In this document: one piece after another, positions 16,727 through 60,405 of the stretch | Layout of the letters: every line of letters starts with the position of its first letter | How positions within the stretch are numbered: position 1 is the stretch's first letter | NCBI GenBank assembly: GCA_032433765.1 | Contig: JAVIAB010000041.1 | Location: forward strand, 76,861,835 to 76,925,834 | Length of the DNA: 64,000 bases | Reading direction: 5' to 3' | DNA from: Megaustenia siamemsis | Taxonomy: Eukaryota > Mollusca > Gastropoda > Stylommatophora > Ariophantidae | The notes under the pieces: model-generated | What the model was told of the DNA's origin: nothing | What the model saw: the letters and a program-made list of their open reading frames with translations, nothing else | Databases searched by the model: none | Position numbers and translations under genes: made by a program

Positions 16727-16959
16727 CCACCACACTGCAATTATCTCCTTTTTCCTTACTTATAAAATCATCCACTAATTGACGTAGACTGCCATTGTCT
16801 TCAGCAAAATAATATTTTGTTTAGTAACCACTATTTTCTTCTTTAGTTACACAACAATTGCTCGCTAATGCCATTTATAATTAACAGTCACATTTTTAGT
16901 AAGTGAATGTAGTTGTGTGATGGTTGAGTTAAGCTGCCGTGCATGTGATGATAAGTTAC

Positions 16960-30100: not shown

Positions 30101-33100
30101 AGGGCTGAATACTTGTGTTGTAGACAAACATTTATTGGACGAAACAGCACGAATAGTAGTTCCCAGTGGTTATATACTGGGTACAAATAATAATACATAA
30201 GTATTATTATATGGGGAACTTCCGAGGCGATAATAGGGAATAATAGAACAAAGTAGTATGTGTTAGCACTCGGAAAAATTGACAGACAAACAACAATAGA
30301 AAAAAACGAAGAACAATATATGGTCCGAAGTGGGATCGAACCCGTACTCAGTGGCACCGCGCCTTGCCACGAGAAGCCGAACGCTTGGTACACTGCCACG
30401 CAGCCAACTAAAAAATTGGCTATTGCAGTAGTGTCTTCCACGAAAGGCGATCTCAATGACTATAGCATAGGGTAACGATCACAGACCGGAAATAAATTGT
30501 ATATTTGTACTTTCCTATTAATGCAAGTATCTCCCAGTAGGGCTGAATACTTGTGTTGTAGACAAACATTTATTGGACGAAACAGCACGAATAGTAGTTC
30601 CCAGTGGTTATATACTGGGTACAAATAATAATACATAAATATTATTATATGGGGAACTTCCGAGGCGATAATAGGGAATAATAGAACAAAGTAGTATGTG
30701 TTAGCACTCGGAAAAATTGACAGACAAACAACAATAGAAAAAAACGAAGAACAATATATGGTCCGAAGTGGGATCGAACCCGTACTCAGTGGCACCGCGC
30801 CTTGCCACGAGAAGCCGAACGCTTGGTACACTGCCACGCAGCCAACTAAAAAATTGGCTATTGCAGTAGTGTCTTCCACGAAAGGCGATCTCAATGACTA
30901 TAGCATAGGGTAACGATCACAGACCGGAAATAAATTGTATATTTGTACTTTCCTATTAATGCAAGTATCTCCCAGTAGGGCTGAATACTTGTGTTGTAGA
31001 CAAACATTTATTGGACGAAACAGCACGAATAGTAGTTCCCAGTGGTTATATACTGGGTACAAATAATAATACATAAATATTATTATATGGGGAACTTCCG
31101 AGGCGATAATAGGGAATAATAGAACAAAGTAGTATGTGTTAGCACTCGGAAAAATTGACAGACAAACAACAATAGAAAAAAACGAAGAACAATATATGGT
31201 CCGAAGTGGGATCGAACCCGTACTCAGTGGCACCGCGCCTTGCCACGAGAAGCCGAACGCTTGGTACACTGCCACGCAGCCAACTAAAAAATTGGCTATT
31301 GCAGTAGTGTCTTCCACGAAAGGCGATCTCAATGACTATAGCATAGGGTAACGATCACAGACCGGAAATAAATTGTATATTTGTACTTTCCTATTAATGC
31401 AAGTATCTCCCAGTAGGGCTGAATACTTGTGTTGTAGACAAACATTTATTGGACGAAACAGCACGAATAGTAGTTCCCAGTGGTTATATACTGGGTACAA
31501 ATAATAATACATAAATATTATTATATGGGGAACTTCCGAGGCGATAATAGGGAATAATAGAACAAAGTAGTATGTGTTAGCACTCGGAAAAATTGACAGA
31601 CAAACAACAATAGAAAAAAACGAAGAACAATATATGGTCCGAAGTGGGATCGAACCCGTACTCAGTGGCACCGCGCCTTGCCACGAGAAGCCGAACGCTT
31701 GGTACACTGCCACGCAGCCAACTAAAAAATTGGCTATTGCAGTAGTGTCTTCCACGAAAGGCGATCTCAATGACTATAGCATAGGGTAACGATCACAGAC
31801 CGGAAATAAATTGTATATTTGTACTTTCCTATTAATGCAAGTATCTCCCAGTAGGGCTGAATACTTGTGTTGTAGACAAACATTTATTGGACGAAACAGC
31901 ACGAATAGTAGTTCCCAGTGGTTATATACTGGGTACAAATAATAATACATAAATATTATTATATGGGGAACTTCCGAGGCGATAATAGGGAATAATAGAA
32001 CAAAGTAGTATGTGTTAGCACTCGGAAAAATTGACAGACAAACAACAATAGAAAAAAACGAAGAACAATATATGGTCCGAAGTGGGATCGAACCCGTACT
32101 CAGTGGCACCGCGCCTTGCCACGAGAAGCCGAACGCTTGGTACACTGCCACGCAGCCAACTAAAAAATTGGCTATTGCAGTAGTGTCTTCCACGAAAGGC
32201 GATCTCAATGACTATAGCATAGGGTAACGATCACAGACCGGAAATAAATTGTATATTTGTACTTTCCTATTAATGCAAGTATCTCCCAGTAGGGCTGAAT
32301 ACTTGTGTTGTAGACAAACATTTATTGGACGAAACAGCACGAATAGTAGTTCCCAGTGGTTATATACTGGGTACAAATAATAATACATAAGTATTATTAT
32401 ATGGGGAACTTCCGAGGCGATAATAGGGAATAATAGAACAAAGTAGTATGTGTTAGCACTCGGAAAAATTGACAGACAAACAACAATAGAAAAAAACGAA
32501 GAACAATATATGGTCCGAAGTGGGATCGAACCCGTACTCAGTGGCACCGCGCCTTGCCACGAGAAGCCGAACGCTTGGTACACTGCCACGCAGCCAACTA
32601 AAAAATTGGCTATTGCAGTAGTGTCTTCCACGAAAGGCAATCTCAATGACTATAGCATAGGGTAACGATCACAGACCGGAAATAAATTGTATATTTGTAC
32701 TTTCCTATTAATGCAAGTATCTCCCAGTAGGGCTGAATACTTGTGTTGTAGACAAACATTTATTGGACGAAACAGCACGAATAGTAGTTCCCAGTGGTTA
32801 TATACTGGGTACAAATAATAATACATAAATATTATTATATGGGGAACTTCCGAGGCGATAATAGGGAATAATAGAACAAAGTAGTATGTGTTAGCACTCG
32901 GAAAAATTGACAGACAAACAACAATAGAAAAAAACGAAGAACAATATATGGTCCGAAGTGGGATCGAACCCGTACTCAGTGGCACCGCGCCTTGCCACGA
33001 GAAGCCGAACGCTTGGTACACTGCCACGCAGCCAACTAAAAAATTGGCTATTGCAGTAGTGTCTTCCACGAAAGGCGATCTCAATGACTATAGCATAGGG

Positions 33101-35354
33101 TAACGATCACAGACCGGAAATAAATTGTATATTTGTACTTTCCTATTAATGCAAGTATCTCCCAGTAGGGCTGAATACTTGTGTTGTAGACAAACATTTA
33201 TTGGACGAAACAGCACGAATAGTAGTTCCCAGTGGTTATATACTGGGTACAAATAATAATACATAAGTATTATTATATGGGGAACTTCCGAGGCGATAAT
33301 AGGGAATAATAGAACAAAGTAGTATGTGTTAGCACTCGGAAAAATTGACAGACAAACAACAATAGAAAAAAACGAAGAACAATATATGGTCCGAAGTGGG
33401 ATCGAACCCGTACTCAGTGGCACCGCGCCTTGCCACGAGAAGCCGAACGCTTGGTACACTGCCACGCAGCCAACTAAAAAATTGGCTATTGCAGTAGTGT
33501 CTTCCACGAAAGGCGATCTCAATGACTATAGCATAGGGTAACGATCACAGACCGGAAATAAATTGTATATTTGTACTTTCCTATTAATGCAAGTATCTCC
33601 CAGTAGGGCTGAATACTTGTGTTGTAGACAAACATTTATTGGACGAAACAGCACGAATAGTAGTTCCCAGTGGTTATATACTGGGTACAAATAATAATAC
33701 ATAAATATTATTATATGGGGAACTTCCGAGGCGATAATAGGGAATAATAGAACAAAGTAGTATGTGTTAGCACTCGGAAAAATTGACAGACAAACAACAA
33801 TAGAAAAAAACGAAGAACAATATATGGTCCGAAGTGGGATCGAACCCGTACTCAGTGGCACCGCGCCTTGCCACGAGAAGCCGAACGCTTGGTACACTGC
33901 CACGCAGCCAACTAAAAAATTGGCTATTGCAGTAGTGTCTTCCACGAAAGGCGATCTCAATGACTATAGCATAGGGTAACGATCACAGACCGGAAATAAA
34001 TTGTATATTTGTACTTTCCTATTAATGCAAGTATCTCCCAGTAGGGCTGAATACTTGTGTTGTAGACAAACATTTATTGGACGAAACAGCACGAATAGTA
34101 GTTCCCAGTGGTTATATACTGGGTACAAATAATAATACATAAATATTATTATATGGGGAACTTCCGAGGCGATAATAGGGAATAATAGAACAAAGTAGTA
34201 TGTGTTAGCACTCGGAAAAATTGACAGACAAACAACAATAGAAAAAAACGAAGAACAATATATGGTCCGAAGTGGGATCGAACCCGTACTCAGTGGCACC
34301 GCGCCTTGCCACGAGAAGCCGAACGCTTGGTACACTGCCACGCAGCCAACTAAAAAATTGGCTATTGCAGTAGTGTCTTCCACGAAAGGCGATCTCAATG
34401 ACTATAGCATAGGGTAACGATCACAGACCGGAAATAAATTGTATATTTGTACTTTCCTATTAATGCAAGTATCTCCCAGTAGGGCTGAATACTTGTGTTG
34501 TAGACAAACATTTATTGGACGAAACAGCACGAATAGTAGTTCCCAGTGGTTATATACTGGGTACAAATAATAATACATAAATATTATTATATGGGGAACT
34601 TCCGAGGCGATAATAGGGAATAATAGAACAAAGTAGTATGTGTTAGCACTCGGAAAAATTGACAGACAAACAACAATAGAAAAAAACGAAGAACAATATA
34701 TGGTCCGAAGTGGGATCGAACCCGTACTCAGTGGCACCGCGCCTTGCCACGAGAAGCCGAACGCTTGGTACACTGCCACGCAGCCAACTAAAAAATTGGC
34801 TATTGCAGTAGTGTCTTCCACGAAAGGCGATCTCAATGACTATAGCATAGGGTAACGATCACAGACCGGAAATAAATTGTATATTTGTACTTTCCTATTA
34901 ATGCAAGTATCTCCCAGTAGGGCTGAATACTTGTGTTGTAGACAAACATTTATTGGACGAAACAGCACGAATAGTAGTTCCCAGTGGTTATATACTGGGT
35001 ACAAATAATAATACATAAATATTATTATATGGGGAACTTCCGAGGCGATAATAGGGAATAATAGAACAAAGTAGTATGTGTTAGCACTCGGAAAAATTGA
35101 CAGACAAACAACAATAGAAAAAAACGAAGAACAATATATGGTCCGAAGTGGGATCGAACCCGTACTCAGTGGCACCGCGCCTTGCCACGAGAAGCCGAAC
35201 GCTTGGTACACTGCCACGCAGCCAACTAAAAAATTGGCTATTGCAGTAGTGTCTTCCACGAAAGGCGATCTCAATGACTATAGCATAGGGTAACGATCAC
35301 AGACCGGAAATAAATTGTATATTTGTACTTTCCTATTAATGCAAGTATCTCCCA
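27170..35354 (-). repeat. 438-bp tRNA-like tandem array, direct part (~18.7 units)
   Basis: Eighteen full plus partial units of exactly 438 bp, almost identical. I see only two segregating sites: AAATATT/AAGTATT at about 29324, and GGCGATC/GGCAATC at about 29573. Each unit holds an 86-bp tRNA-like segment on the minus strand (first at 27255-27340) with a perfect B-box (GGTTCGATCCC). The array starts abruptly at GGGAATAATAG after the left TSD. Units 5 and 12 share both variants and units 7 and 14 share one, giving a 7-unit (3066-bp) higher-order period. The near-identity implies recent amplification or homogenisation. It lies inside RTE copy A, itself inside intron 2 of the lectin gene. Each unit has a long frame only because 438 is a multiple of three. 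Confidence 0.93.
27255..27340 (-). ncRNA. tRNA-like segment of the 438-bp unit (representative)
   Basis: On the minus strand the segment runs from TGGCTGCGTGGCAGTG through AAGCGTTCGGCTTC and GGTGCCACTGAG to GGGTTCGATCCC and ACTTCGGACCA. The T-loop/B-box GGTTCGATCCC fits the pol III consensus. The A-box region (TGGCAGTGTACC) is only partial. An inverted repeat GTGGCA…TGCCAC suggests a long variable arm or an added hairpin. It ends in CCA. This is how tRNA-derived SINEs look. It is repeated about twenty times at 438-bp spacing. I cannot assign an anticodon, so it is not called a tRNA gene. Confidence 0.7.
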
Positions 35355-35978
35355 AGGCGCGGTGCCACTGAGTACGGGTTCGATCCCACTTCGGACCATA
35401 TATTGTTCTTCGTTTTTTTCTATTGTTGTTTGTCTGTCAATTTTTCCGAGTGCTAACACATACTACTTTGTTCTATTATTCCCTATTATCGCCTCGGAAG
35501 TTCCCCATATAATAATATTTATGTATTATTATTTGTACCCAGTATATAACCACTGGGAACTACTATTCGTGCTGTTTCGTCCAATAAATGTTTGTCTACA
35601 ACACAAGTATTCAGCCCTACTGGGAGATACTTGCATTAATAGGAAAGTACAAATATACAATTTATTTCCGGTCTGTGATCGTTACCCTATGCTATAGTCA
35701 TTGAGATCGCCTTTCGTGGAAGACACTACTGCAATAGCCAATTTTTTAGTTGGCTGCGTGGCAGTGTACCAAGCGTTCGGCTTCTCGTGGCAAGGCGCGG
35801 TGCCACTGAGTACGGGTTCGATCCCACTTCGGACCATATATTGTTCTTCGTTTTTTTCTATTGTTGTTTGTCTGTCAATTTTTCCGAGTGCTAACACATA
35901 CTACTTTGTTCTATTATTCCCTATTATCGCCTCGGAAGTTCCCCATATAATAATATTTATGTATTATTATTTGTACCC
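35355..35978 (+). repeat. 438-bp array, inverted terminal part (~1.4 units)
   Basis: At 35354 the array flips orientation: forward …GTATCTCCCA meets inverted AGGCGCGGTGCC…, with a 2-bp CA shared by both sides. The inverted block (tRNA-like segments now on the plus strand, one partial and one full at about 35749-35834) runs to …TTGTACCC at 35978, followed by the right TSD. Its sequence equals that of the direct units. Confidence 0.92.
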
Positions 35979-36575
35979 GTTACATATTATTAGCCTGTTT
36001 TCTTCACAAAATTGAATTAATCTTTCTCCTCTGTCATTTCTTTTTCCTAACCCATGATTTTCTATAACGGTCTTATATCTGCCTTTTCCCACTTTTGCGT
36101 TCATGTCACCCATTACAATCAAGATGTCTGTAGATTTCACTTGCTTCATAACTGTATTTAGATCTCCATAGTATGCTTCTATTTGTTCATCTGTATAGTC
36201 TTGAGTAGGTGCGTATGTCTGTATTTTTGCAATGTCAAATGGCTTTGCCTTCATTTTTATTAATATAATCCTATCATTGTATGTCACTTGAGTATTTATA
36301 TATTTTTGTAGTTTTCGTTTTTTTAGTATGCCTACCCCTCTTTGGTGTTCTGTATTGTTGCCTGAGTATATAAATGTATATTTATCGTCTTGTATGTATC
36401 CACTTTCCTTCCATCTTGTTTCTGGTATGCCTAAGATATCTATGTTTAATCGCTCTGCTTCTATCATAAGATTTTCTAGTTTTCCTTGTTGGTATAAGGT
36501 TCTAACATTCCATGTGGCTATTTTTATTTCGTTCCTAAAACAGTAGTTAGAATTTCTCTCCTTGGCTTTCTTTGG
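35979..36575 (-). mobile_element. RTE copy A, endonuclease N-terminal part
   Basis: Begins (right TSD) inside the EN code. The minus frame reads from about 36550: KIATWNVRTLYQQGKLENLM, DILGIPETRWKESG (catalytic Glu), QTYAPTQDY, LIVMGDMNAKVGKG (GD.N motif), NRLIICN at the insertion. These are the motif order and spacing of RTE-type apurinic endonucleases that nick target DNA. The frame is intact through this part, so the endonuclease was whole until the array landed in it. Upstream of 36560 no further coding is evident. Confidence 0.88.
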
Positions 36576-38599: not shown

Positions 38600-39380
38600 A
38601 AATGCTGATGATACAGTCTTAATCGCTAAGTGAAAAATGAGTTACAATAAATGCTAGACATTATAGTGAAAGTAAGCCAAAATAAAAGACTCAGCCTCAA
38701 TATTAAAAAGACAGAAATAATGGTAGCAACAGAGAAAAAGACTTCACCGCCATGCACAATAAAGACAAGTGAGAGAATATTTAAACAGGTATATAAATTT
38801 AAATATCTGTGAACATAGTTAACCTCAAATGGTATATATAGATATCATAGATGAGTGGCAGAACGGCTCAGGCAAAAGCATCATTCCAAAAAATGAGGAA
38901 GATATTGTGAAATCCATTTTTGACAATAGAAATAAGATTTGGAGTTATGTAGAGCCAATATTAAATATAGATGTGAATCAAGGACAATAGGACGACAGAC
39001 AAGAAAATCACTTCAGGCTGTAGAAATGTAACTTTACAGCAGAATGTTGAAAATATCACGGACAGCTAAGAAGAGTAATAAAACGTTCAGAAAAAACTCA
39101 AAGCAAAAATAGAGCTAAAATTCAATATTAGAAATAAACAATCATCATTTTCTGGCCAGTAATGAAAAGGGAACAGCTGGGAATATATTGTAGCAACTGT
39201 GTTAATTGAGGGACAAAGAGATAGAGGGAAAGAAAGAGAAAATATTCTAGACGGCTTAATTAAGAGACTGGCTTGGCAGATGTTCAACTACATAAATAAT
39301 AAGTAACTGTCGAGATCGAAAGTTGTAGAGAGACATGATCACCTACGTCAGCAGGCATAATACTTGATGATAATGAATTT
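38600..39380 (+). mobile_element. Decayed LINE-C RT fragment
   Basis: Opens with NADDTVLIAK-like code (GCTGATGATACAGTC at 38604). It continues through the thumb with numerous stops and ends CAGGCATAATACTTGATGATAATG. It is collinear with 18412-18983 over its 3' 500 bp (shared GACGACAGACAAGAAAATCAC, AATAACTGTCGAGATCGAA, and AGAGACATGATCAC/AGAGACATGACCAC). It lies just left of the palindrome's TSD. Confidence 0.7.
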
Positions 39381-39398
39381 TAACGACGGTATCGTAAT

Positions 39399-39404
39399 TT
39401 AGGA
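39399..39404. repeat. Left TSD TTAGGA of the palindrome
   Basis: TTAGGA immediately precedes AGTAGTATAC. The same hexamer in the same orientation follows GTATACTACT at 50866-50871. Confidence 0.85.
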
Positions 39405-39860
39405 AGTAGTATACAAGGGTCCAACTGTTTATTATTTGGCCCGTAAATTAACAAAGATATATAGTAGGCGCGCGGCGCGCCTAATGTACTGTAGGCGCAG
39501 GGGGAGTTAACCGTGACAGCTGGTCCCAGTGACCCCGGAAGTGACCTGTTTATGTCTGGTGTATGCTGACTTTGGAGTTCTTTATGTACTTGATCGTTAG
39601 TGATAGGTTAGTAGATTATACAACATCAATGAAAAACAATCAATATAAAACAGAAGACAAAGATATATTTTATTCTTTTATTATCTCAATAGGTGTATAA
39701 CATACATTGATATTATATAACATTACAAAAATATTCAGTACACGAAGTAAATATATAGTACAAGGATAACATTTAGTTATACCTATGTAGTTGGGTGTCT
39801 GCTTAGCTAGGGTGAAACTGTTAGAGATTGCTGGGTAGTCTAAACTGGTAGTGTAAAGAG

Positions 39861-40241
39861 TTAAATATCTAGAGGTGTAGTCGAGACATTATCATCAGCT
39901 ACCTTTCTTTTTATATAGAAATAGGAAAGAGCATTTCTTGTTTGACTATAGGAAAATATGGAATTATTTAAGACTTTGAATCCTACATTTTTCCCACCCT
40001 TAGCCTTTTGCGTAGCGAGAACCTCTAAAAACATATCTTTATCTAATTTGTTGTGTTGCTTGCTTAGCCCTTTACAACTGATTTTATCGTAATCCCCACT
40101 ACAATGGTACGTCTTACTACATAAGCTAACAAGAGCTGTCCCTTCGTACTCTAGTTTAAAAAGCCCGGGCGTTCGTTTGGTGTACGCTTTAACACCCTTA
40201 CAGTTTATACATTCTGTTTTGCTAGTATGTTCATCGCAGCG
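39861..40241 (-). pseudogene. Polinton DNA polymerase B, C-terminal remnant (left arm)
   Basis: Minus frame of ~126 codons ending at TAA 39863-39861. It reads CINCKGVKAYTKRTPGLFKL, EYEGTALVSLCSKTYHC, ISCKGLSKQHNKLDKDMFLE, GFKVLNNSIFSYSQ and FYIKRKVADDNVSTTPLDI. The RTPGLFK(L/V)E, LCSKTYxC, S.KG, and KRKV…ST.PLDI blocks are characteristic of the last part of Polinton family-B polymerases. The catalytic palm motifs are absent. Upstream, coding is replaced by the 32-bp minisatellite. It is the exact mirror of 50029-50409. Confidence 0.85.
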
Positions 40242-40243
40242 AT

Positions 40244-40525
40244 GGGTGTATGGAGGTTGCCTAGTGTGTCATGATGGCTGTATAGGGGTCGTCTAGTGTG
40301 TTATGAGGGTTGTATAGGGGTCGGCTAGTATGTCGTGATGGGTGTACGGAGGGCGTTTAGTGTGTCATGATGGTTGTATAGAGGGCGTTTAGTGTGTCAT
40401 GAGGGTTGTATAGGGGTCGTCTAGTGTGCCATGATGGGTGTATGGAGGTCGTTTAGTGTATCGTGATGGGTGTATGGAGGTCGTCTACTGTGTCGTGAGG
40501 GGTGTATGGCGGTTGTCTGGTATAT
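40244..40525. repeat. 32-bp minisatellite, left arm (~9 copies)
   Basis: Units such as GTGTATGGAGGTCGTCTAGT followed by GTGTCATGATGG. It directly abuts the 5' edge of the polymerase remnant. The right arm copy (49718-50026) has one unit more. Confidence 0.9.
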
Positions 40526-41324
40526 CATACTTTAATCAACCAATAAGAAAACATGAAAAAACGAAGGAATTCAACATTACTTATCTTAACTACTTTACAT
40601 CAATACAGTTTAATAACGTGTTATCGTTAAGTCTTACCATACTTTAAGAGAAAACATTCAAACTTACAGCGTAAAATATAGTCTCAATCATCTACACCGA
40701 ATATAACCTGTTATCGATAAGCCTTAACATACGTTAAGAGAAAACAAGCCAACTTACGGTGCAAAACTCCGCTAGAGTGAACAGTAACTTTCCTTGAATC
40801 AACCAAACTTATAACGCCGTCTAGTTTAAATATAACCTGGTAAGAAATGAATAAATTAGCCAATCAGCGAGTGACTATGCCAACATCGACTGATACCTGG
40901 ATCAACCAATCAGAGAAGAGTATTAGTATAGGAGGCGGAGCAAAGAAATGACTGACAGGTGGATTAACCAATCAGAGAAGTGCGTTAGCCCAAGCGTAGG
41001 TAGTGGCTGTCGGGTCAGCAGTGGGGGAAAAATGCGGGGTGGTGGATTACTTGAACTCATTTTGACCCCTGAGCCAATTCCAGAGGAGTTCTATGACCTC
41101 ATTTTGACCGCTGAAGGCTTTAATACCAATGTTGCCCACTTCAACGAACGACAGACATCATTAAAGGTGATTACTTCAGCTCTTAGACTTTGGAGTTCCA
41201 TATCTTTATCACTTGATTGAATGACAGACAACAGTAAAGATAATCATTTCAGGTAAGAAAACTTAGTTCCAAACCCTAATATTTATACTCATAGTCACAA
41301 ATTTTGATGCAAAACCCTAACAAT
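40526..41324. other. Unique part of left arm
   Basis: Non-repetitive arm sequence with two short direct phrases (TAACGTGTTATCGTTAAG / CCTGTTATCGATAAGCCTTA) and CCAATCAG/CAATCAGAGAAG strings repeated three to four times. A 90-codon frame at 40948-41220 exists in both arms. I recognise no domain in it. Confidence 0.45.
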
Positions 41325-43110
41325 TTAGTCCCAAAGTGATACTAGTTCGACACGACAGTCGTAAATGTTATATGCAAAGTCCAAAAGTTTGTCAAAAAGA
41401 TAACCTAAACTCAAAATAGTTAGACACAAAGCCCAACAATTTATATGCAAAGTCTAAAAAGTTACTCCAAAAGACAACTAATGTAACACTTAACCCCAAA
41501 ATTTCGTCGCATAACCAAACAGTTGAACTAAAAAGCCTAAAAATTTAGTCCCAAAGTGATACTAGTTCGACACAAAAGTCGTAAATGTTATATGCAAAGT
41601 CCAAAAGTTTGTCAAAAAGACAACCTTAACTCAAAATAGTTAGACACAAAGCCCAAAAATTTATATGCAAAGTCTAAAAAGTTACTCCAAAAGACAACTA
41701 ATGTAACACTTAACCCCAAAATTTCGTCGCATAACCAAACAGTTGAACTCAAAAGCCTAAAAATTTAGTCCCAAAGTGATACTAGTTCGACACAAAAGTC
41801 GTAAATGTTATATGCAAAGTCCAAAAGTTTGTCAAAAAGACAACCTTAACTCAAAATAGTTAGACACAAAGCCCAACAATTTATATGCAAAGTCTAAAAA
41901 GTTACTCCAAAAGACAACTAATGTAACACTTAACCCCAAAATTTCGTCTCATAACCAAACAGTTGAACTCAAAAGCCTAAAAATTTAGGCCCAAAGTCGT
42001 AATTGTTCGACACAAAAGTCGTAAATGTTATATGCAAAATCCAAAAGTTTGTCAAAAAGACAACCCAAACTCAAAATAGTTAGACACAAAGCCCAACAAT
42101 TTATATGCAAAGTCCAAAAAGTTACTCCCAAAGGCAACTAATGTAACACTTAACCCCAAAATTTCGTCGCATAACCAAACAGTTGAACTCAAAAGCCTAA
42201 AAATTTAGTCCCAAAGTGATACTAGTTCGACACAAAAGTCGTAAATGTTATATGCAAAGTCCAAAAGTTTGTCAAAAAGACAACCTTAACTCAAAATAGT
42301 TAGACACAAAGCCCAACAATTTATATGCAAAGTCTAAAAAGTTACTCCAAAAGACAACTAATGTAACACTTAAACCCAAAATTTCGTCTCATAACCAAAC
42401 AGTTGAACTCAAAAGCCTAAAAATTTAGTCCCAAAGTCGTAATTGTTCGACACAAAAGTCGTAAATGTTATATGCAAAATCCAAAAGTTTGTCAAAAAGA
42501 CAACCCAAACTCAAAATAGTTAGACACAAAGCCCAACAATTTATATGCAAAGTCCAAAAAGTTACTCCCAAAGGCAACTAATGTAACACTTAACCCCAAA
42601 ATTTCGTCGCATAACCAAACAGTTGAACTCAAAAGCCTAAAAATTTAGTCCCAAAGGCGTAATTGTTCGACACGAAAGTCGTAAATGTTATATGCAAAGT
42701 CCAAAAGTTTGTCAAAAAGACAACCTAAACTCAAAATAGTTAGACACGAAAGGTCAAAAAAGTATATGCAAAGTCCAAAATGTTACGTCAAAAGACAACT
42801 AATATAACAACAAGCCCTAAAATTTCGTCGCGTAACCAAAAAGTTGAACTCAAAACCCTACAAAATTTAAACCCAAAGGCAAAATAGTTAGACACGAAAG
42901 ACCAAATAGTTATATTCAAAGTCCAAAAGTTTGTCAAAAGACAACCCAAACTCAAAAGTTTGTCAAAAAGACAACCCAAACTCAAAATAGTTAGCCATGG
43001 AAGGTCAAAAAGGTATACTCAAAGTCCAAAATGTTACTTCAAAAGACAACTAATATAACAACAAGCCCCAAAACTTCGTCTCATAACCAAAAAGTTGAAC
43101 TCAAAACCCT
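41325..43110. repeat. 220-bp tandem repeat, left arm (7 units plus decayed copies)
   Basis: Units are exactly 220 bp apart (41341, 41561, 41781, 42001, 42221, 42441, 42661). Each is made of two diverged ~110-bp halves sharing TTATATGCAAAGTC(C/T)AAAA and AGACAAC. Two variants alternate: CCCAAAGTGATACTAGTTCG and CCCAAAGTCGTAATTGTTCG. The inner end (42720-43110) is shorter and more diverged. Confidence 0.93.
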
Positions 43111-43589
43111 AAAAAGTGTCCACTTATCAACCAAAGTCTTTAATACAGCTGAGACAACCCTAATAAATAATTACAATTTACTAAAAATGTTGCCCTTGAT
43201 GATAGTTGCGACTATGTCTAAATCATTATTGAAAATATTCATAGAACTCTAGTAAAAACCAAACACACTAAAACACCACATTGAAATAATGAACTTAAAG
43301 TTCACGCCCCTGTCACAACTCTGCTAAGAAAAGTACTGCAAAGCATGAAAGTTATGTCCCCTGATATAACTCTACTAAACGAAAGTATTACCAAACACGT
43401 AGGTTATACTCCTACCATAACCCACTAAGAAAAACAAGATTTTGCTTAAAATACCACATTTATGATTGTTACGCCCCTTGTCCCTTTATGAGGGGACGCC
43501 CATGAAACTGTTAGAAATAGTAAATTTAACCTAGTGGCATACCCCAGATGTTATATTAGACATCCCCATAGCAAAAATTTAATTAAAAC

Positions 43590-44905
43590 TCACTTTTGAA
43601 ATTACTACCCCTGTACCCATTTTTGGCGGTTACACCCATGAAACTGTTAAAAATAGTCAATTTAACATCTAGACATACCACAAACTTTATATTAAACATC
43701 TCCGTATCAAGAATTTACATAAAAACCACTTTTATGAGTGTTGCCCCCTTACCCATTTTTGGCGGTTACGCCCATGAAACTGTTAAAAATAGTAAATTTA
43801 ACATATAGACATACCCTAAACTTTATATTAACCATCTCCGTATCAAGAATTTACATAAAAACAACTTTTGAAATTACTACCCCAGTACCCATTTTTGGCG
43901 GTTACGCCCACGAAACTGTTAAAAATAGTCAATTTAACATATAGACATACCCCAAACTTTATCTTAAGCATCCCCATATCAAGAATTTACATAAAAACAA
44001 CTTTTGAAATTACTACCCCTGTGCCCATTTTTGGCGGTTACGCCCATGAAACTGTTAAAAATAGTAAATTTAACATCTAGACATACCCCAAACTTTATAT
44101 TAAGCATCCCCATATCAAGAATTTACATAAAAACAACTTTTGAAATTACTACCCCTGTGCCCATTTTTGGCGGTTACGCCCATGAAACTGTTAAAAATAG
44201 TAAATTTAACATCTAGACATACCCCAAACTTTATATTAAACATCTCCGTATCAAGAATTTACATAAAAACAGCTTTTGAAATTACTACCCCTGTACCCAT
44301 TTTTGGCGGTTACGCCCATGAAATCGATAGAAAATAGTCAATTTAACATCTAGACATACCCCAAACTTCATTTTAGTCATCCCCATATCAAGAATTTACA
44401 TAAAAATCACTTTTGACATTACTACCCCTGTACCCATTTTTGGTGGTTACGCCCATGAAATCGATAAAAAATTGAAATTTAACACCTAGACATACCCCAA
44501 ACTTTATAATAAACATCCCCGTATCAAGAATTTACATAAAAACAACTTTTGAAATTACTACCCCAGTACCCATTTTTGGCGGTTACGCCCATGAAACTGT
44601 TAAAAATAGTAAATTTAACATCTAGACATACCCCAAACTTTATATTAAACATCCCCGTATCAAGAATTTACATAAAAACAACTTTTGAAATTACTACCCC
44701 AGTACCCATTTTTGGCGGTTACGCCCATGAAACTGTTAAAAATAGTCAATTTAACATCTAGACATACCACAAACTTTATATTAAGCATCCCCATATCAAG
44801 AATTTACATAAAAATCACTTTTGAAATTACTACCCCTGTACCCATTTTTGGCGGTTACGCCCATGAAATCGATAAAAAATTAAAATTTAACCTATTGGTA
44901 TACCT
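43590..44905. repeat. 136-bp tandem repeat, left arm (~10 units)
   Basis: Units of about 136 bp with the anchor ACCCATTTTTGGCGGTTACG followed by CCCATGAAAC(TG). It recurs at 43615, 43753, 43887, 44023, 44159, 44296, 44432, 44567, 44703 and 44839 approximately. Frames of 65-78 codons in each unit are by-products. Confidence 0.93.
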
Positions 44906-44964
44906 CAAACATAATATTTGACACGCCCATGTATCAAATTTACCTGAAAAATCAATCAAAAATT

Positions 44965-45188
44965 AGTAGTATACATTGGCACTTAGGATGGATAGACTAT
45001 AAGGAAAAACGGTAGACTCTCATATAAGGAAAAAACCGCACCAAAAAATGTGCCTCGATCTGCGGGTAGACTATTTATATAAGGAATATTCCTGGCGGCA
45101 GAAAAAACTGCCGGTAGACTATTTATATAAGGAATATTCTGCCGCTGGCGGGAGAATTACGCAACCTAATTTGACATTGTATACTACT
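44965..45188. other. 224-bp core of the palindrome with its own 10-bp inverted ends
   Basis: The core begins AGTAGTATAC (44965-44974) and ends GTATACTACT (45179-45188), the same decamer that bounds the whole element. Inside are repeated GGTAGACTATTTATATAAGG AATATTC phrases (about 45064 and 45113) and GC-rich inverted strings (CTGGCGGCAG/CTGCCGG). Either a miniature element with the same termini or an old terminus pair. Confidence 0.8.
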
Positions 45189-45259
45189 AATTTTTGATTG
45201 ATTTTTCAGGTAAATTTGATACATGGGCGTGTCAAATATTATGTTTGAGGTATACCAAT

Positions 45260-46425
45260 AGGTTAAATTTTAATTTTTTATCGATTTCATGGGCGTAACC
45301 GCCAAAAATGGGTACAGGGGTAGTAATTTCAAAAGTGATTTTTATGTAAATTCTTGATATGGGGATGCTTAATATAAAGTTTGTGGTATGTCTAGATGTT
45401 AAATTGACTATTTTTAACAGTTTCATGGGCGTAACCGCCAAAAATGGGTACTGGGGTAGTAATTTCAAAAGTTGTTTTTATGTAAATTCTTGATACGGGG
45501 ATGTTTATTATAAAGTTTGGGGTATGTCTAGATGTTAAATTTACTATTTTTAACAGTTTCATGGGCGTAACCGCCAAAAATGGGTACTGGGGTAGTAATT
45601 TCAAAAGTTGTTTTTATGTAAATTCTTGATACGGGGATGTTTATTATAAAGTTTGGGGTATGTCTAGGTGTTAAATTTCAATTTTTTATCGATTTCATGG
45701 GCGTAACCGCCAAAAATGGGTACAGGGGTAGTAATGTCAAAAGTGATTTTTATGTAAATTCTTGATATAGGGATGACTAAAATGAAGTTTGGGGTATGTC
45801 TAGATGTTAAATTGACTATTTTCTATCGATTTCATGGGCGTAACCGTTAAAAATGGGTACAGGGGTGGTAATTTCAAAAGCTGTTTTTATGTAAATTCTT
45901 GATACGGAGATGTTTAATATAAAGTTTGGGGTATGTCTAGATGTTAAATTTACTATTTTTAACAGTTTCATGGGCGTAACTGCCAAAAATGGGCACAGGG
46001 GTAGTAATTTCAAAAGTTGTTTTTATGTAAATTCTTTATATGGGGATGCTTAATATAAAGTTTGGGGTATGTCTATATGTTAAATTGACTATTTTTAACA
46101 GTTTCGTGGGCGTAACCGCCAAAAATGGGTACTGGGGTAGTAATTTCAAAAGTTGTTTTTATGTAAATTCTTGATACGGAGATGGTTAATATAAAGTTTA
46201 GGGTATGTCTATATGTTAAATTTACTATTTTTAACAGTTTCATGGGCGTAACCGCCAAAAATGGGTAAGGGGGCAACACTCATAAAAGTGGTTTTTATGT
46301 AAATTCTTGATACGGAGATGTTTAATATAAAGTTTGTGGTATGTCTAGATGTTAAATTGACTATTTTTAACAGTTTCATGGGTGTAACCGCCAAAAATGG
46401 GTACAGGGGTAGTAATTTCAAAAGT
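45260..46425. repeat. 136-bp tandem repeat, right arm (~9 units)
   Basis: Reverse complement of the left-arm array with CGTAACCGCCAAAAATGGGT anchors near 45293, 45429, 45565, 45700, 45837, 45973, 46109, 46245 and 46384. It has one unit fewer than the left. Confidence 0.93.
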
Positions 46426-46904
46426 GAGTTTTAAGTAAATTTTTGCTATCGGGATGTCTAATATAACATCTGGGGTATGCCACTAGGTTAAATTTACTAT
46501 TTCTAACAGTTTCATGGGCGTCCCCTCATAAAGGGACAAGGGGCGTAACAATCATAAATGTGGTATTTTAAGCAAAATCTTGTTTTTCTTAGTGGGTTAT
46601 GGTAGGAGTATAACCTACGTGTTTGGTAATACTTTCGTTTAGTAGAGTTATAGCAGGGGACATAACTTTCATGCTTTGCAGTACTTTTCTTAGCAGAGTT
46701 GTGACAGGGGCGTGAACTTTAAGTTCATTCTTTCAATGTGGTGTTTTAGTGTGTTTGGTTTTTACTAGAGTTCTATGAATATTTTCAATAATGATTTAGA
46801 CATAGTCGCAACTATCATCAAGGGCAACATTTTTAGTAAATTGTAATTATTTATTAGGGTTGTCTCAGCTGTATTAAAAACTTTGGTTGATAAGTGGACA
46901 CTTT

Positions 46905-48935
46905 TTAGGGTTTTGAGTTCAACTTTTTGGTTATGAGACGAAGTTTTGGGGCTTGTTGTTATATTAGTTGTCTTTTGAAGTAACATTTTGGACTTTGAGT
47001 ATACCTTTTTGACCTTCCATGGCTAACTATTTTGAGTTTGGGTTGTCTTTTTGACAAACTTTTGAGTTTGGGTTGTCTTTTTGACAAAATTTTGGACTTT
47101 GAATATAACTATTTGGTCTTTCGTGTCTAACTATTTTGCCTTTGGGTTTAAATTTTGTAGGGTTTTGAGTTCAACTTTTTGGTTACGCGACGAAATTTTA
47201 GGGCTTGTTGTTATATTAGTTGTCTTTTGACGTAACATTTTGGACTTTGCATATACTTTTTTGACCTTTCGTGTCTAACTATTTTGAGTTTAGGTTGTCT
47301 TTTTGACAAACTTTTGGATTTTGCATATAACATTTACGACTTTTGTGTCGAACAATTACGACTTTGGGACTAAATTTTTAGGCTTTTGAGTTCAACTGTT
47401 TGGTTATGAGACGAAATTTTGGGTTTAAGTGTTACATTAGTTGTCTTTTGGAGTAACTTTTTAGACTTTGCATATAAATTGTTGGGCTTTGTGTCTAACT
47501 ATTTTGAGTTAAGGTTGTCTTTTTGACAAACTTTTGGACTTTGCATATAACATTTACGACTTTTGTGTCGAACTAGTATCACTTTGGGACTAAATTTTTA
47601 GGCTTTTGAGTTCAACTGTTTGGTTATGCGACGAAATTTTAGGGTTAAGTGTTACATTAGTTGCCTTTGGGAGTAACTTTTTGGACTTTGCATATGAATT
47701 GTTGGGCTTTGTGTCTAACTATTTTGAGTTTGGGTTGTCTTTTTGACAAACTTTTGGATTTTGCATATAACATTTACGACTTTTGTGTCGAACAATTACG
47801 ACTTTGGGCCTAAATTTTTAGGCTTTTGAGTTCAACTGTTTGGTTATGAGACGAAATTTTGGGGTTAAGTGTTACATTAGTTGTCTTTTGGAGTAACTTT
47901 TTAGACTTTGCATATAAATTGTTGGGCTTTGTGTCTAACTATTTTGAGTTAAGGTTGTCTTTTTGACAAACTTTTGGACTTTGCATATAACATTTACGAC
48001 TTTTGTGTCGAACTAGTATCACTTTGGGACTAAATTTTTAGGCTTTTGAGTTCAACTGTTTGGTTATGCGACGAAATTTTGGGGTTAAGTGTTACATTAG
48101 TTGTCTTTTGGAGTAACTTTTTAGACTTTGCATATAAATTGTTGGGCTTTGTGTCTAACTATTTTGAGTTAAGGTTGTCTTTTTGACAAACTTTTGGACT
48201 TTGCATATAACATTTACGACTTTTGTGTCGAACTAGTATCACTTTGGGACTAAATTTTTAGGCTTTTGAGTTCAACTGTTTGGTTATGAGACGAAATTTT
48301 GGGGTTAAGTGTTACATTAGTTGTCTTTTGGAGTAACTTTTTAGACTTTGCATATAAATTGTTGGGCTTTGTGTCTAACTATTTTGAGTTAAGGTTGTCT
48401 TTTTGACAAACTTTTGGACTTTGCATATAACATTTACGACTTTTGTGTCGAACTAGTATCACTTTGGGACTAAATTTTTAGGCTTTTGAGTTCAACTGTT
48501 TGGTTATGCGACGAAATTTTGGGGTTAAGTGTTACATTAGTTGTCTTTTGGAGTAACTTTTTAGACTTTGCATATAAATTGTTGGGCTTTGTGTCTAACT
48601 ATTTTGAGTTAAGGTTGTCTTTTTGACAAACTTTTGGACTTTGCATATAACATTTACGACTTTTGTGTCGAACTAGTATCACTTTGGGACTAAATTTTTA
48701 GGCTTTTGAGTTCAACTGTTTGGTTATGCGACGAAATTTTGGGGTTAAGTGTTACATTAGTTGTCTTTTGGAGTAACTTTTTAGACTTTGCATATAAATT
48801 GGTGGGCTTTGTGTCTAACTATTTTGAGTTTAGGTTATCTTTTTGACAAACTTTTGGACTTTGCATATAACATTTACGACTGTCGTGTCGAACTAGTATC
48901 ACTTTGGGACTAAATTGTTAGGGTTTTGCATCAAA
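46905..48935. repeat. 220-bp tandem repeat, right arm (8 units plus decayed copies)
   Basis: Reverse complement of the left-arm array. Unit anchors (AACTAGTATC or AACAATTACG) lie at 47351, 47571, 47791, 48011, 48231, 48451, 48671 and 48891. There is one full unit more than in the left arm, and the order of the two variants differs in the inner part. Confidence 0.93.
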
Positions 48936-49717
48936 ATTTGTGACTATGAGTATAAATATTAGGGTTTGGAACTAAGTTTTCTTACCTGAAATGATCATCT
49001 TTACTGTTGTCTGTCATTCAATCAAGTGATAAAGATATGGAATTCCAAAGTCTAAGAGCTGAAGTAATCACCTTTAATGATGTCTGTCGTTCGTTGAAGT
49101 GGGCAACATTGGTATTAAAGCCTTCAGCGGTCAAAATGAGGTCATAGAACTCCTCTGGAATTGGCTCAGGGGTCAAAATGAGTTCAAGTAATCCACCACC
49201 CCGCATTTTTCCCCCACTGCTGACCCGACAGCCACTACCTACGCTTGGGCTAACGCACTTCTCTGATTTGTTAATCCACCTGTCAGTCATTTCTTTGCTC
49301 CGCCTCCTATACTAATACTCTTCTCTGATTGGTTGATCCAGGTATCAGTCGATGTTGGCATATTCACTCGCTGATTGGCTAATTTATTCATTTCTTACCA
49401 GGTTATATTTAAACTAGACGGCGTTTTAAGTTTGGTTGATTCAAGGAAAGTTACTGTTCACTCTAGCGGAGTTTTGCACCGTAAGTTGGCTTGTTTTCTC
49501 TTAACGTATGTTAAGGCTTATCGATAACAGGTTATATTCGGTGTAGATGATTGAGACTATATTTTACGCTGTAAGTTTGAATGTTTTCTCTTAAAGTATG
49601 GTAAGACTTAACGATAACACGTTATTAAACTGTATTGATGTAAAGTAGTTAAGATAAGTAATGTTGAATTCCTTCGTTTTTTCATGTTTTCTTATTGGTT
49701 GATTAAAGTATGATATA

Positions 49718-50026
49718 CCAGACAACCGCCATACACCCCTCACGACACAGTAGACGACCTCCATACACCCATCACGATACACTAAACGACCTCCATACAC
49801 CCATCATGACACACTAGACGACCTCCATGCCCCCATCATGGCACACTAGACGACCCCTATACAACCCTCATGACACACTAAACGCCCTCTATACAACCAT
49901 CATGACACACTAAACGCCCTCCGTACACCCATCACGACATACTAGCCGACCCCTATACAACCCTCATAACACACTAGACGACCCCTATACAGCCATCATG
50001 ACACACTAGGCAACCTCCATACACCC
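49718..50026. repeat. 32-bp minisatellite, right arm
   Basis: Mirror of 40244-40525 with one additional 32-bp unit (near 49802-49833, containing CCTCCATGCCCCC). Confidence 0.9.
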
Positions 50027-50028
50027 AT

Positions 50029-50409
50029 CGCTGCGATGAACATACTAGCAAAACAGAATGTATAAACTGTAAGGGTGTTAAAGCGTACACCAAACGAACG
50101 CCCGGGCTTTTTAAACTAGAGTACGAAGGGACAGCTCTTGTTAGCTTATGTAGTAAGACGTACCATTGTAGTGGGGATTACGATAAAATCAGTTGTAAAG
50201 GGCTAAGCAAGCAACACAACAAATTAGATAAAGATATGTTTTTAGAGGTTCTCGCTACGCAAAAGGCTAAGGGTGGGAAAAATGTAGGATTCAAAGTCTT
50301 AAATAATTCCATATTTTCCTATAGTCAAACAAGAAATGCTCTTTCCTATTTCTATATAAAAAGAAAGGTAGCTGATGATAATGTCTCGACTACACCTCTA
50401 GATATTTAA
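50029..50409 (+). pseudogene. Polinton DNA polymerase B, C-terminal remnant (right arm)
   Basis: Plus frame ending at TAA 50407-50409, identical in sequence to the left-arm copy. It faces outward, toward the element terminus ~455 bp away. It is free of stops over its length despite lacking the catalytic two-thirds of the protein. An intact frame in both arms is better explained by arm-to-arm conversion and youth than by function. A selected role for the tail cannot be excluded. Confidence 0.85.
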
Positions 50410-50865
50410 CTCTTTACACTACCAGTTTAGACTACCCAGCAATCTCTAACAGTTTCACCCTAGCTAAGCAGACACCCAACTACATAGGTATAACTAAATG
50501 TTATCCTTGTACTATATATTTACTTCGTGTACTGAATATTTTTGTAATGTTATATAATATCAATGTATGTTATACACCTATTGAGATAATAAAAGAATAA
50601 AATATATCTTTGTCTTCTGTTTTATATTGATTGTTTTTCATTGATGTTGTATAATCTACTAACCTATCACTAACGATCAAGTACATAAAGAACTCCAAAG
50701 TCAGCATACACCAGACATAAACAGGTCACTTCCGGGGTCACTGGGACCAGCTGTCACGGTTAACTCCCCCTGCGCCTACAGTACATTAGGCGCGCCGCGC
50801 GCCTACTATATATCTTTGTTAATTTACGGGCCAAATAATAAACAGTTGGACCCTTGTATACTACT

Positions 50866-50871
50866 TTAGGA
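50866..50871. repeat. Right TSD TTAGGA of the palindrome
   Basis: Directly follows GTATACTACT. It pairs with 39399-39404. Confidence 0.85.
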
Positions 50872-51027
50872 TTTATTATTTATGCAATTTAATACAATTT
50901 TTTTTGGCTGGAACAGAAGAAATAATTTGTTTATAACCTGTTGTGGAGAAATTAAAAAAATAATTACAAGTCTCACCAATAAAAATAGACACAATGGTAA
51001 ATGTTAATATTCTACGCATTTTTTTAG

Positions 51028-56880: not shown

Positions 56881-58190
56881 ACACCTTACTCCTACTGAAA
56901 GATTCGAATTGATAACATGACACACAACCGATAGTTCATCTTGAAACCTTAATACTGATGAAGGCCTCTAGTTATTTGATAACGGCACTCAGCCGACAGT
57001 CACATTGAACTCTTGCTAATAATGAAGAGTCCTATATTGATAATCACGGCACACAGCCGATAGTTCATCTTGAAGCCTGCATACTGATGAAGGCTTATAG
57101 TTATTTGATCACGGCACTCAGCCGACAGTCACATTGAACTCTTGCTAATAATGAAGAGTCCTATACTGATAATCACGGCACACAGCCGATAGTTCATCTT
57201 GAAACCTGCATACTGATGAAGATTTCTAAATTCTGTCCTAATGGCACACAGCCGACAGTTCAACTTGATATGCATTATCTACTGATGAAGATTTCTAAAT
57301 TCTGTCCTAATGGCACACAGCCGACAGTTCAACTTGCTATGCATTAGCTACTGATGAAGATTTCTAAATTCTGTCCTAATGGCACACAGCCGACAGTTCA
57401 ACTTGATATGCATTATCTACTGATGAAGATTTCTAAATTCTGTCCTAATGGCACACAGCCGACAGTTCAACTTGCTATGCATTAGCTACTGATGAAGATT
57501 TCTAAATTCTGTCCTAATGGCACACAGCCGACAGTTCAACTTGATATGCATTATCTACTGATGAAGATTTCTAAATTATGTCCTAATGGCACACAGCCGA
57601 CAGTTCAACTTGCTATGCATTAGCTACTGATGAAGATTTCTAAATTCTGTCCTAATGGCACACAGCCGACAGTTCAACTTGATATGCATTATCTACTGAT
57701 GAAGATTTCTAAATTCTGTCCTAATGGCACACAGCCGACAGTTCAACTTGATATGCATTATCTACTGATGAAGATTTCTAAATTCTGTCCTAATGGCACA
57801 CAGCCGACAGTTCAACTTGATATGCATTATCTACTGATGAAGATTTCTAAATTCTGTCCTAATGGCACACAGCCGACAGTTCAACTTGATATGCATTATC
57901 TACTGATGAAGATTTCTAAATTCTGTCCTAATGGCACACAGCCGACAGTTCAACTTGATATGCATTATCTACTGATGAAGATTTCTAAATTCTGTCCTAA
58001 TGGCACACAGCCGACAGTTCAACTTGATATGCATTATCTACTGATGAAGATTTCTAAATTCTGTCCTAATGGCACACAGCCGACAGTTCAACTTGATATG
58101 CATTATCTACTGATGAAGATTTCTAAATTCTGTCCTAATGGCACACTGCCGACAGTTCATCTTGATATGCCTTGTCTACACTAGACCTAG
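56881..58190. repeat. 69-bp satellite with diverged 5' relatives
   Basis: From about 57213 to 58184, 14 units of 69 bp begin CTGATGAAGATTTCTAAATT and contain GGCACACAGCCGACAGTTCA. The first six alternate TTGATATGCATTATCTA and TTGCTATGCATTAGCTA, a 138-bp dimer; later ones are uniform. Upstream, 56900-57212 holds diverged ~130-140 bp relatives (ACGGCAC(A/T)CAGCCGA(C/T)AG). Since 69 is 3 x 23 the uniform units form an open frame of 23-residue repeats. Confidence 0.95.
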
Positions 58191-60176: not shown

Positions 60177-60304
60177 TGGTGGTCTGGAGTTAGACTAGGA
60201 CTACGTTGGGCTGATAACGCCAGCATCATGTGTCAATGGGTGACGCTGCCATGAGATCAAGAATCATAACCGTGTATACTTCTCAACACTTGATGTGGTA
60301 ACAT

Positions 60305-60405
60305 GAGTAAGATGAGAGAGAGAGAGAGAGAAAGTAAAGAGAGAGAGAGAGTAGAAAGAGAGAGAGAGAGAGTAGAAAGAGAGAGAGAGAGTAGAGTGAG
60401 AGACA
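60305..60405. repeat. (GA)n with AGTAGAAA/AGTAAAG interruptions
   Basis: Four GA runs separated by GTAGAAA-type spacers at ~25-bp intervals. Confidence 0.9.

What the first reader, a model, noticed from the sequence alone, without database searches (positions are those of the whole stretch)
39405..50865. An 11.46-kb palindromic Polinton derivative made almost entirely of inverted satellite arms
Seen: two ~5.6-kb arms in reverse complement, AGTAGTATAC termini, TTAGGA on both sides, and tandem repeats of 32, 220 and 136 bp. Known: Polintons have 6-bp TSDs, 5'-AG ends and a protein-primed polB. Inferred: a non-autonomous foldback element in which terminal inverted repeats grew to the whole element and all genes except a polB tail were lost. 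I know of no described Polinton derivative with this build. It may replicate by self-priming or hairpin intermediates using a Polinton polymerase in trans.
Basis: partly seen in the sequence, partly recalled or inferred. Interest (0 to 1): 0.88.

Follow-up and report, generated by a model that had tools for sequence, protein, structure and literature searches.

The report
Palindromic Polinton transposon built of satellites
A virus-like jumping gene has become a giant mirror-image DNA in one animal genome; about a thousand relatives share its ends, some still carry their own DNA polymerase on both sides of the mirror, and their two halves stay matched as if each copy is made by folding back on itself.

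Summary
Confirmed. Window 39405-50865 is an 11,461-bp insertion with TSD TTAGGA, Maverick/Polinton end motif (AGT)2//(ACT)2 and two inverted arms, 99.2% identical, around a 224-bp centre. Both arms keep the last ~125 codons of a Polinton PolB. It is not an assembly fold: the flanks are not mirrored.

It belongs to a large family in its 2.59-Gb genome. The 18-bp end AGTAGTATACAAGGGTCC occurs 994+999 times (reversed-pattern control 0+0); 20 of 27 sampled convergent pairs, and 10 of 10 close relatives, have exact, different 6-bp TSDs. Some related palindromes carry an uninterrupted polB frame (~1,475 codons) in both arms; in the one dissected no other gene was found. Its 3' part shows dN/dS 0.05-0.09. 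The window tail is 98-99% identical to that PolB, but 62% to PolB of an ordinary 14.6-kb Polinton in the same genome. The centre is a mini-element with the ordinary Polinton's ends. Arms of one element match each other while elements diverge.

Best mechanism: displaced strands fold into one-ended hairpins that PolB copies around; integrase acts in trans. Structure shown; replication inferred.

The parts
39399..39404 (.). left target-site duplication TTAGGA
   Evidence: exact match to 50866-50871
39405..39414 (+). left terminus AGTAGTATAC, Maverick end motif (AGT)2
39405..44964 (+). left arm
   Evidence: 99.2% identical to the right arm
39861..40268 (-). polB 3' remnant ORF (last ~125 codons; motif C lost), stop ~456 bp from the terminus
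40241..40518 (.). 32-bp tandem array, left
41310..42957 (.). 220-bp tandem array, left
43496..44891 (.). 136-bp tandem array, left; same repeat as at the centre of a polB-carrying palindrome (L051; 83% over 1,560 bp, single stretches up to 86%)
44965..45188 (.). 224-bp centre: mini-element with the ends (right edge read inward AGTAGTATACAATGTCAAATTAGG) and subterminal repeats of ordinary Polintons; same place and flanks in related palindromes
45189..50865 (-). right arm (reverse complement of the left)
45285..46521 (.). 136-bp tandem array, right (9 units, in the same order as 10 on the left)
47060..48928 (.). 220-bp tandem array, right
49720..50029 (.). 32-bp tandem array, right
50002..50409 (+). 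polB 3' remnant ORF, right copy (identical to the left)
50856..50865 (-). right terminus GTATACTACT, (ACT)2
50866..50871 (.). right target-site duplication TTAGGA

Best explanation
SHOWN: the element is a non-autonomous member of a large family of palindromic Polinton (Maverick) transposons. Fuller members are 10-13.6-kb mirror-image DNAs; several carry an uninterrupted PolB frame under purifying selection in each arm (tail outward) and, in the one dissected, no other recognisable gene, around a ~150-225-bp centre bounded by Polinton terminal motifs. The window copy lost all of polB but its last ~125 codons from both arms. INFERRED: the palindrome arose when a replicating strand of a polB-end segment folded back at the short inverted Polinton ends of the central mini-element and was copied back to its own 5' end. 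It now replicates as a one-ended genome: PolB is protein-primed at an outer AGTAGT end, strand displacement frees a self-complementary strand that snaps into a hairpin with one duplex end, and priming there copies around the loop to give the full palindrome again. Because the arms pair in each hairpin they are kept matched (concerted evolution). Integration with 6-bp TSDs is by the rve/chromodomain integrase of ordinary Polintons in trans; PolB for the window copy comes in trans, most likely from polB-carrying palindromes.
For: TSDs exact and different: 20 of 27 convergent pairs, 10 of 10 window-like pairs, 3 of 4 polB palindromes whose ends were fetched. Copy number: 18-mer end 994+999, control 0+0; 41 convergent pairs, 3.2-14.8 kb, among its first 100 places. 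End motif equals the commonest one of vertebrate Mavericks, 5'-(AGT)2//(ACT)2-3' (PMC8097293). PolB identity. Divergent polB pairs: 27 pairs among 108 scored hits, 7 with both frames >=1,400 codons; in 22 of the 27 the two arms have equal bit scores. No other Pfam gene in the C124 pieces and no long ORF in its end or centre. dN/dS 0.05-0.09 over 1,101 bp in 10 comparisons of 5 elements. Tail 98-99% to palindromic PolB, 62% to ordinary PolB. Ordinary Polinton C8:14399648-14414292, TSD GCAGTG, 532-bp TIR 99.6%; beside polB of its close relative on C41: packaging-type ATPase (Pox_A32 3.5e-5), integrase (rve 9.6e-6) with chromodomain. Shared centre. Left and right ends identical in 13 of 14 elements, between elements mean 27 substitutions. 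Tandem units in the same order in both arms (136-bp array).
Against: No replication intermediate, transcript or protein was seen. A hairpin does not by itself homogenise arms; mismatch repair or copying between arms has to be assumed. The centre was found in only 5 of 18 sources and was absent from 4 of 16 (axes were estimated, so some misses may be off-axis); palindromes may have arisen more than once or lose the centre. The window's inner arms differ by ~0.9% while its outer 1.4 kb is identical; this gradient was not general. 4 of the 14 elements do not form left-right sister pairs in the tree, because near-identical elements have identical ends; 10 of the 14 were picked as best matches to the window. 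The two ends of the mini-element agree fully in only 4 of 7 complete centres. Trans integration is inferred from absence, in one palindrome (C124). The 367-aa C-terminal piece of C124 gets no Pfam polymerase hit; its PolB identity rests on 57% identity to a Littorina protein named DNA polymerase. ATPase and integrase ORFs were searched from C41, 97.7% identical to C8 there, not from C8 itself.
Confidence: 0.7

Rival explanations
1. Terminal inverted repeats of an ordinary Polinton expanded inward step by step (as in Galileo/Foldback) until they met; genes were lost as they grew.
For: TIR lengthening with internal tandem repeats is described for Galileo (PMC3573991, passages). In the 220-bp array the unit order between arms is not fully colinear (one of 7 left units out of order).
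Against: Palindromes with long polB frames in both arms exist; 136-bp units correspond in order between arms; the window tail belongs to the palindromic PolB lineage (98-99%), not to that of the ordinary Polintons (62%).
Confidence: 0.1
2. Arms are kept alike after insertion by ordinary chromosomal gene conversion between inverted repeats, not by hairpin replication.
For: Conversion between arms of chromosomal palindromes is known (recalled). Inner-arm differences in the window show that homogenisation is incomplete.
Against: Near-identical copies at different loci already have identical left and right ends, and 22 of 27 divergent polB pairs have equal scores in both arms, which suggests sameness at insertion.
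Confidence: 0.15
3. Assembly fold: a hairpin-turned read made a false palindrome.
For: 3 of 27 sampled loci (L018, L043/44, L047/48) have perfectly mirrored flanks and no direct TSD, as a fold would give.
Against: The window has unmirrored flanks (55/200), an exact direct TSD, and arms differing by 41 substitutions and three array-unit indels; 30 other sampled loci have exact direct TSDs (13, 7, 10).
Confidence: 0.02
4. The central mini-element is a later insertion into a palindrome that already existed, unrelated to how the palindrome arose.
For: It has Polinton ends and lies between arms that match up to it.
Against: No 6-bp TSD: AAAATT versus AATTTT; only the self-complementary AATT is shared. 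Same site and flanks in polB palindromes and in derivatives, so it is at least ancestral to this class.
Confidence: 0.2

Closest known systems
Polinton/Maverick self-synthesizing transposons
   Same: 6-bp TSD, (AGT)2//(ACT)2 end motif, inverted repeats, PolB lineage; an ordinary one sits in the same genome
   Different: Intact vertebrate ones are 12.7-24.6 kb with TIRs of 46-1,447 bp and two gene modules, mostly pointing to the centre (PMC8097293). Here the inverted repeat is the whole element, polB is the only gene found or only its tail is left, and the polB tail points outward (so it does in the ordinary Polinton of this genome)
Galileo, Tetris and other Foldback-like elements
   Same: Long, internally repetitive inverted arms that can make up nearly the whole element; Tetris even has ~220-bp units (PMC3573991, passages; PMC4079207, abstract)
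   Different: [quoted passage not shown] no polymerase gene (recalled), no Polinton ends; longest arms seen in the passages ~1.26 kb, here ~5.6 kb
Snapback defective genomes of adeno-associated virus
   Same: Defective genomes in a 'snapback' double-stranded configuration that hold one end of the genome (PMC8235507, abstract)
   Different: By-products in virus stocks that do not use protein priming (recalled), not a chromosomal lineage with its own selected polymerase
Adenovirus panhandle replication and symmetric recombinant genomes (recalled, no paper read)
   Same: Protein-primed ends; displaced strands close through inverted ends; inverted duplications of one genome end occur
   Different: Only the terminal repeats pair in normal adenovirus; palindromic forms are rare variants

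Membership tests
Polinton/Maverick | 6-bp target-site duplication | tested here: met
   TTAGGA here; 20 of 27 and 10 of 10 relatives exact
Polinton/Maverick | end motif (AGT)2//(ACT)2 or similar | tested here: met
Polinton/Maverick | terminal inverted repeats | tested here: met
   whole arms
[quoted passage not shown]
   only the 3' tail in the window; long open frames in related palindromes. Protein priming itself was not tested
Polinton/Maverick | retroviral-type integrase | tested here: not met
   no integrase hit in the polB tail or in 10 further window ORFs of at least 60 aa searched in Pfam (one search lists 31 ORFs in 39300-51000, many of them mirror or repeat copies), nor in the C124 palindrome pieces; present in ordinary Polintons of the genome
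Polinton/Maverick | packaging ATPase, capsid genes, protease | tested here: not met
   no such Pfam hit in the same ORFs; filed as a non-autonomous derivative, not as an autonomous Polinton
Foldback/Galileo (P superfamily) | P-type transposase and its TSD length | tested here: not met
   6-bp TSD and Polinton ends instead; no transposase hit; that P elements have 7-8 bp is recalled
Foldback-like build | long inverted arms with internal tandem repeats | tested here: met
   a resemblance in build only

The most novel reading that the evidence does not exclude
A new kind of eukaryotic replicon: a polymerase-only, mirror-image transposon lineage that replicates as a one-ended, protein-primed hairpin, keeps two copies of its single gene alike through that cycle, takes integrase from ordinary Polintons, and in turn feeds gene-less palindromic satellites such as the window copy: a two-tier parasite chain with about a thousand loci in one genome.
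Probability: 0.5. Interest if true: 0.95.

Novelty: new variant of a known kind. Interest (0 to 1): 0.86.

Why it matters
It shows a Polinton lineage reduced to a polymerase and its ends, in mirror-image form, selected and amplified to roughly a thousand loci in one genome. It makes a replication mode (strand displacement plus hairpin copying by a protein-primed polymerase) testable in an animal genome, shows how satellites can build up inside such elements, and gives a natural series from ordinary Polinton to polymerase-only palindrome to gene-less palindrome.

Tried and rejected
Assembly fold rejected (see rivals). Step-by-step TIR growth rejected as main route. General homogenisation of outer over inner arms: seen in the window only, not claimed (the alignments of L010, L019 and L020 there look disturbed by a wrong axis, and I draw nothing from them). 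Viral contigs: three scans found no relative. Pfam, PHROGs and PDB single-sequence searches of the 134-aa tail found nothing. A profile of longer relatives gave only weak PDB hits, 15 of 16 of them DNA (or engineered TNA) polymerases at E 0.13-1.5; two of six longer relatives scanned touch DNA_pol_B_2 below its cut-off (E 0.0056 and 0.093). Pfam on 10 further window ORFs gave two hits below the curated cut-off, one of them (E 0.0017, a clostridial haemagglutinin-component model) in a frame that runs through the satellite region; I take both as chance. Structure predictions were low-confidence (mean pLDDT 56.5 and 41.7) and were not searched. Host not named: an RT search gave no close named hit among 120 listed; the six named PolB relatives among the 120 listed are all gastropods, which may reflect transfer. 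L027/L028 is a chance pair, not an element. C73 polB palindrome: ends not resolved in the fetched pieces. The type-2 end 23-mer could not be counted: the genome search did not complete it; nor the integrase and ATPase searches. Novelty in print: ten searches of the open-access library; 'Polinton'+'palindrom' gave 44 papers (30 listings seen), 'Polinton'+'foldback' 7; none of the listings seen describes this build. Passages only were seen of PMC4642659, PMC6431247, PMC12220804 and PMC8268682. Repbase and Dfam were not searched, and subscription papers are mostly missing.
Full report
1. The 11,461-bp stretch 39405-50865 is flanked by TTAGGA on both sides, starts AGTAGTATAC and ends GTATACTACT. 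Its arms (39405-44976 against the reverse complement of 45177-50865) differ by 41 substitutions in 5,436 aligned columns, by one repeat unit in each of the 32-, 220- and 136-bp arrays, and by a single base. The 200-bp flanks are not mirror images (55/200), so the palindrome ends at the TSDs. AGTAGTATAC occurs four times in the window (both strands), 0.23 expected, always at an arm boundary: two outer ends and both edges of a 224-bp centre, which folds better as single-stranded DNA than all 200 shuffles (z -4.5).

2. It is a Polinton relative. The commonest end motif of vertebrate Mavericks is 5'-(AGT)2//(ACT)2-3', and intact ones have 6-bp TSDs (PMC8097293; section 7 read; passages); the element has both. 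Each arm carries a 134-codon open stretch whose last ~125 residues match PolB C-termini: 19 of 23 database candidates at E<=1e-3. Longer relatives have MDTDS (motif C), and some KLLGNSAYGK, upstream. Four gastropod relatives are named DNA-directed DNA polymerase in UniRef; one of them (Littorina) touches Pfam DNA_pol_B_2 below its cut-off (E 0.0056). A profile of seven relatives aligns PGLFKLEYEG...KTY with the same place in archaeal family B polymerases, weakly (best E 0.13; 15 of the 16 chains listed are polymerases). That KTY is the KxY motif is recalled.

3. It is one of a large family. In the host genome (2.591 Gb, 155 contigs, unnamed) the 18-base end AGTAGTATACAAGGGTCC occurs 994 times forward and 999 times reverse, against 0 and 0 for the reversed pattern. 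(The bare 10-mer is not enriched: 3,873+3,893 against 6,828+7,270 reversed.) Of the first 100 places of the 18-mer, 82 form 41 convergent pairs 3.2-14.8 kb long (median 9.5 kb), against one divergent and six same-strand neighbours within 20 kb. I then took all 27 convergent pairs among the first 100 places of the 10-mer. Exact 6-bp TSDs: 20 of 27, all different. Misses: L014 5/6, L033/34 4/6, L012 2/6, L027/28 not an element, and L018, L043/44 and L047/48 with mirrored flanks. Of the 17 read in full, 12 are covered by inverted matches for 87% or more, two for 58%, one for 32%, one for 4% (L013), and one is no element.

4. Close relatives of the window. Its outer 836 bp gave 40 scored matches from 4,563 candidates; besides the window itself they include 14 convergent pairs at 98-100%. 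Ten of those 14 were read: 10 of 10 have exact, different TSDs. With three C1 elements that carry the same tail and the window, the two ends of one element are identical in 13 of 14 (2 substitutions in L011), while elements differ by 27 substitutions on average (0-57) over ~0.83-0.91 kb. In the tree 10 of 14 left-right pairs are sisters; the other four belong to sets of elements with identical ends.

5. Palindromes with polymerases. A search with a Littorina PolB fragment (P0175, 381 aa) gave 108 scored hits from 8,113 candidates. 54 of them form 27 divergent pairs less than 15 kb apart; 36 of 108 lie in open frames of 1,400 codons or more; in 7 pairs both frames do. In 22 of the 27 pairs the two hits have equal bit scores (counted). 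Two elements were bounded directly: C51:103049715-103062023 (12,309 bp, TSD GACGTT) and C41:78714687-78724830 (10,144 bp, TSD AACATG); C124 has AGTAGTATAT ends and CACATG on both sides; the ends of C73 were not resolved. The C124 centre is a 97% palindrome holding 136-bp repeats like the window's (83% over 1,560 bp) and, facing outward on both sides, the start of the polB frame with C2H2 zinc fingers. The two 505-aa middle pieces show no integrase, nor does the C-terminal piece; the end has no ORF above 63 aa and the centre, apart from the two polB starts, none above 81 aa. So polB is the only gene found in that palindrome. Over 1,101 bp of its 3' part, ten comparisons of five palindromic elements give dN/dS 0.05-0.09 (dS 0.05-0.15): strong purifying selection. 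The window tail is 98-99% identical to these and 62% to the PolB of two ordinary Polintons. The window element is therefore a deletion derivative of a palindromic polB element.

6. The ordinary Polinton in the same genome. C8:14399648-14414292 (14,645 bp) has TSD GCAGTG on both sides and 532-bp TIRs, 99.6% identical, beginning AGTAGTATACAATGTCAATTAGGG. Beside polB of its relative on C41 (97.7% identical over the compared 3.2 kb) lie an ATPase (Pox_A32, E 3.5e-5, just above cut-off) and an integrase frame (rve 9.6e-6, below its cut-off, with chromodomain 3.3e-6, above it). Pieces were read separately; no whole ordinary element was put together.

7. The centre. The window's 224-bp centre has the ordinary Polinton's ends and subterminal repeats (best stretches 89-98% over 36-98 bp). 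The mini-element was found in the window, L051, L011, L023/24 and L025/26 (151-224 bp; 5 of 18 sources). Of 16 further centres it is complete in 7 (168-208 bp), cut off with one end visible in 3, recognisable without end motif in 2, and not seen in 4, where the axis was only estimated. In the 11 cases where I read both flanks they are alike...CAAAAATT[AGTAGT...ACTACT]AATTTTTG... (L051 has one more A/T). Its two ends differ between elements but agree with each other in 4 of the 7 (L094, L096, L097, L098); L087, L092 and L099 do not fully agree. It lacks a 6-bp TSD.

8. Mechanism. Shared centre and flanks argue that this class descends from one palindromic ancestor. Yet arms within an element are nearly identical while elements differ by up to ~6% at the ends. 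Arms therefore are copied from, or repaired against, each other in the transposition cycle. Protein-primed strand displacement on a palindrome does this naturally: each displaced strand folds into a hairpin with one duplex end carrying the origin and can be primed there and copied round the loop. The origin by fold-back fits the short inverted Polinton ends at the centre and the order of the 136-bp units, which is the same in both arms (10 left, 9 right; the 220-bp array is nearly so, with one of 7 left units out of order). Integrase must come from elsewhere, most simply from the ordinary Polintons. These steps are inference.

9. Relation to known things. It works like a Foldback element in build (Galileo, PMC3573991, passages; Tetris with ~220-bp repeats, PMC4079207, abstract) and like a snapback genome in logic (AAV, PMC8235507, abstract), but by ends, TSDs and PolB it is Polinton-derived. 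It fails the integrase and packaging-gene tests, so it is filed as a non-autonomous, palindromic Polinton derivative. In vertebrate Mavericks the polB module mostly points to the centre; here the tail points outward in palindromic and ordinary elements alike. In ten literature searches no listing seen described a palindromic Polinton (calls in Tried and rejected); Repbase and Dfam were not available.

10. Limits. Copy numbers rest on exact end motifs and include singles. No centre of this type was found near the estimated axis in 12 of the 14 single-stretch C1 elements (three of these 12, L009, L015 and L022, are not near-complete palindromes, and L019 shares the window's polB tail, so its axis may be misplaced). 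Some may be an independent class: L017 and L021 carry a different polB stretch. Host identity is unknown; named PolB relatives are gastropods. 'Complete' polB means an uninterrupted frame; start codon, splicing and activity were not tested.

Noticed in passing
27165-35986: 438-bp tandem array, 18.7 copies at ~99.8% identity, followed by an inverted partial array at 35353-35986; each unit holds a tRNA-like stretch (relaxed ARAGORN only: tRNA-Glu, ctc; none at default settings), no Rfam hit.
   Followed up: partly
11883-16729: 58-bp tandem array of about 80 copies, ~93% identical.
   Followed up: no
56908-58184: 69-bp tandem array (14 copies, 98% matches) with a 184-aa open frame (57630-58184) running through it.
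   Followed up: no
23498-26396 and 58854-63256: LINE reverse transcriptase and endonuclease ORFs (RVT_1, Exo_endo_phos), several copies in inverted orientation to each other.
   Followed up: partly
L018; L043/L044; L047/L048: Three of 27 sampled loci have perfectly mirrored flanks (200/200, 30/30, 30/30) and no direct TSD: assembly folds or real inverted duplications started at the palindrome.
   Followed up: partly
L016: Element with exact TSD but two different end types (CAGGAAGG left, AAGGGTCC right): arms of two subfamilies may have recombined.
   Followed up: no
L013: 4.2-kb element with exact TSD and the same ends but not palindromic, with a polB fragment in one half only; possible precursor or product of palindromes.
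   Followed up: no
L103:802-1638: The ordinary Polinton at C8:14399648-14414292 lies beside a ~50-bp tandem array that matches its other flank (48 bp, up to 100%).
   Followed up: no
L017, L021: Palindromes with another polB stretch (P0175/P0160 residues ~110-250, 51-57% identity) in both arms and no mini-element centre found: possibly a second, independent palindromic lineage.
   Followed up: partly
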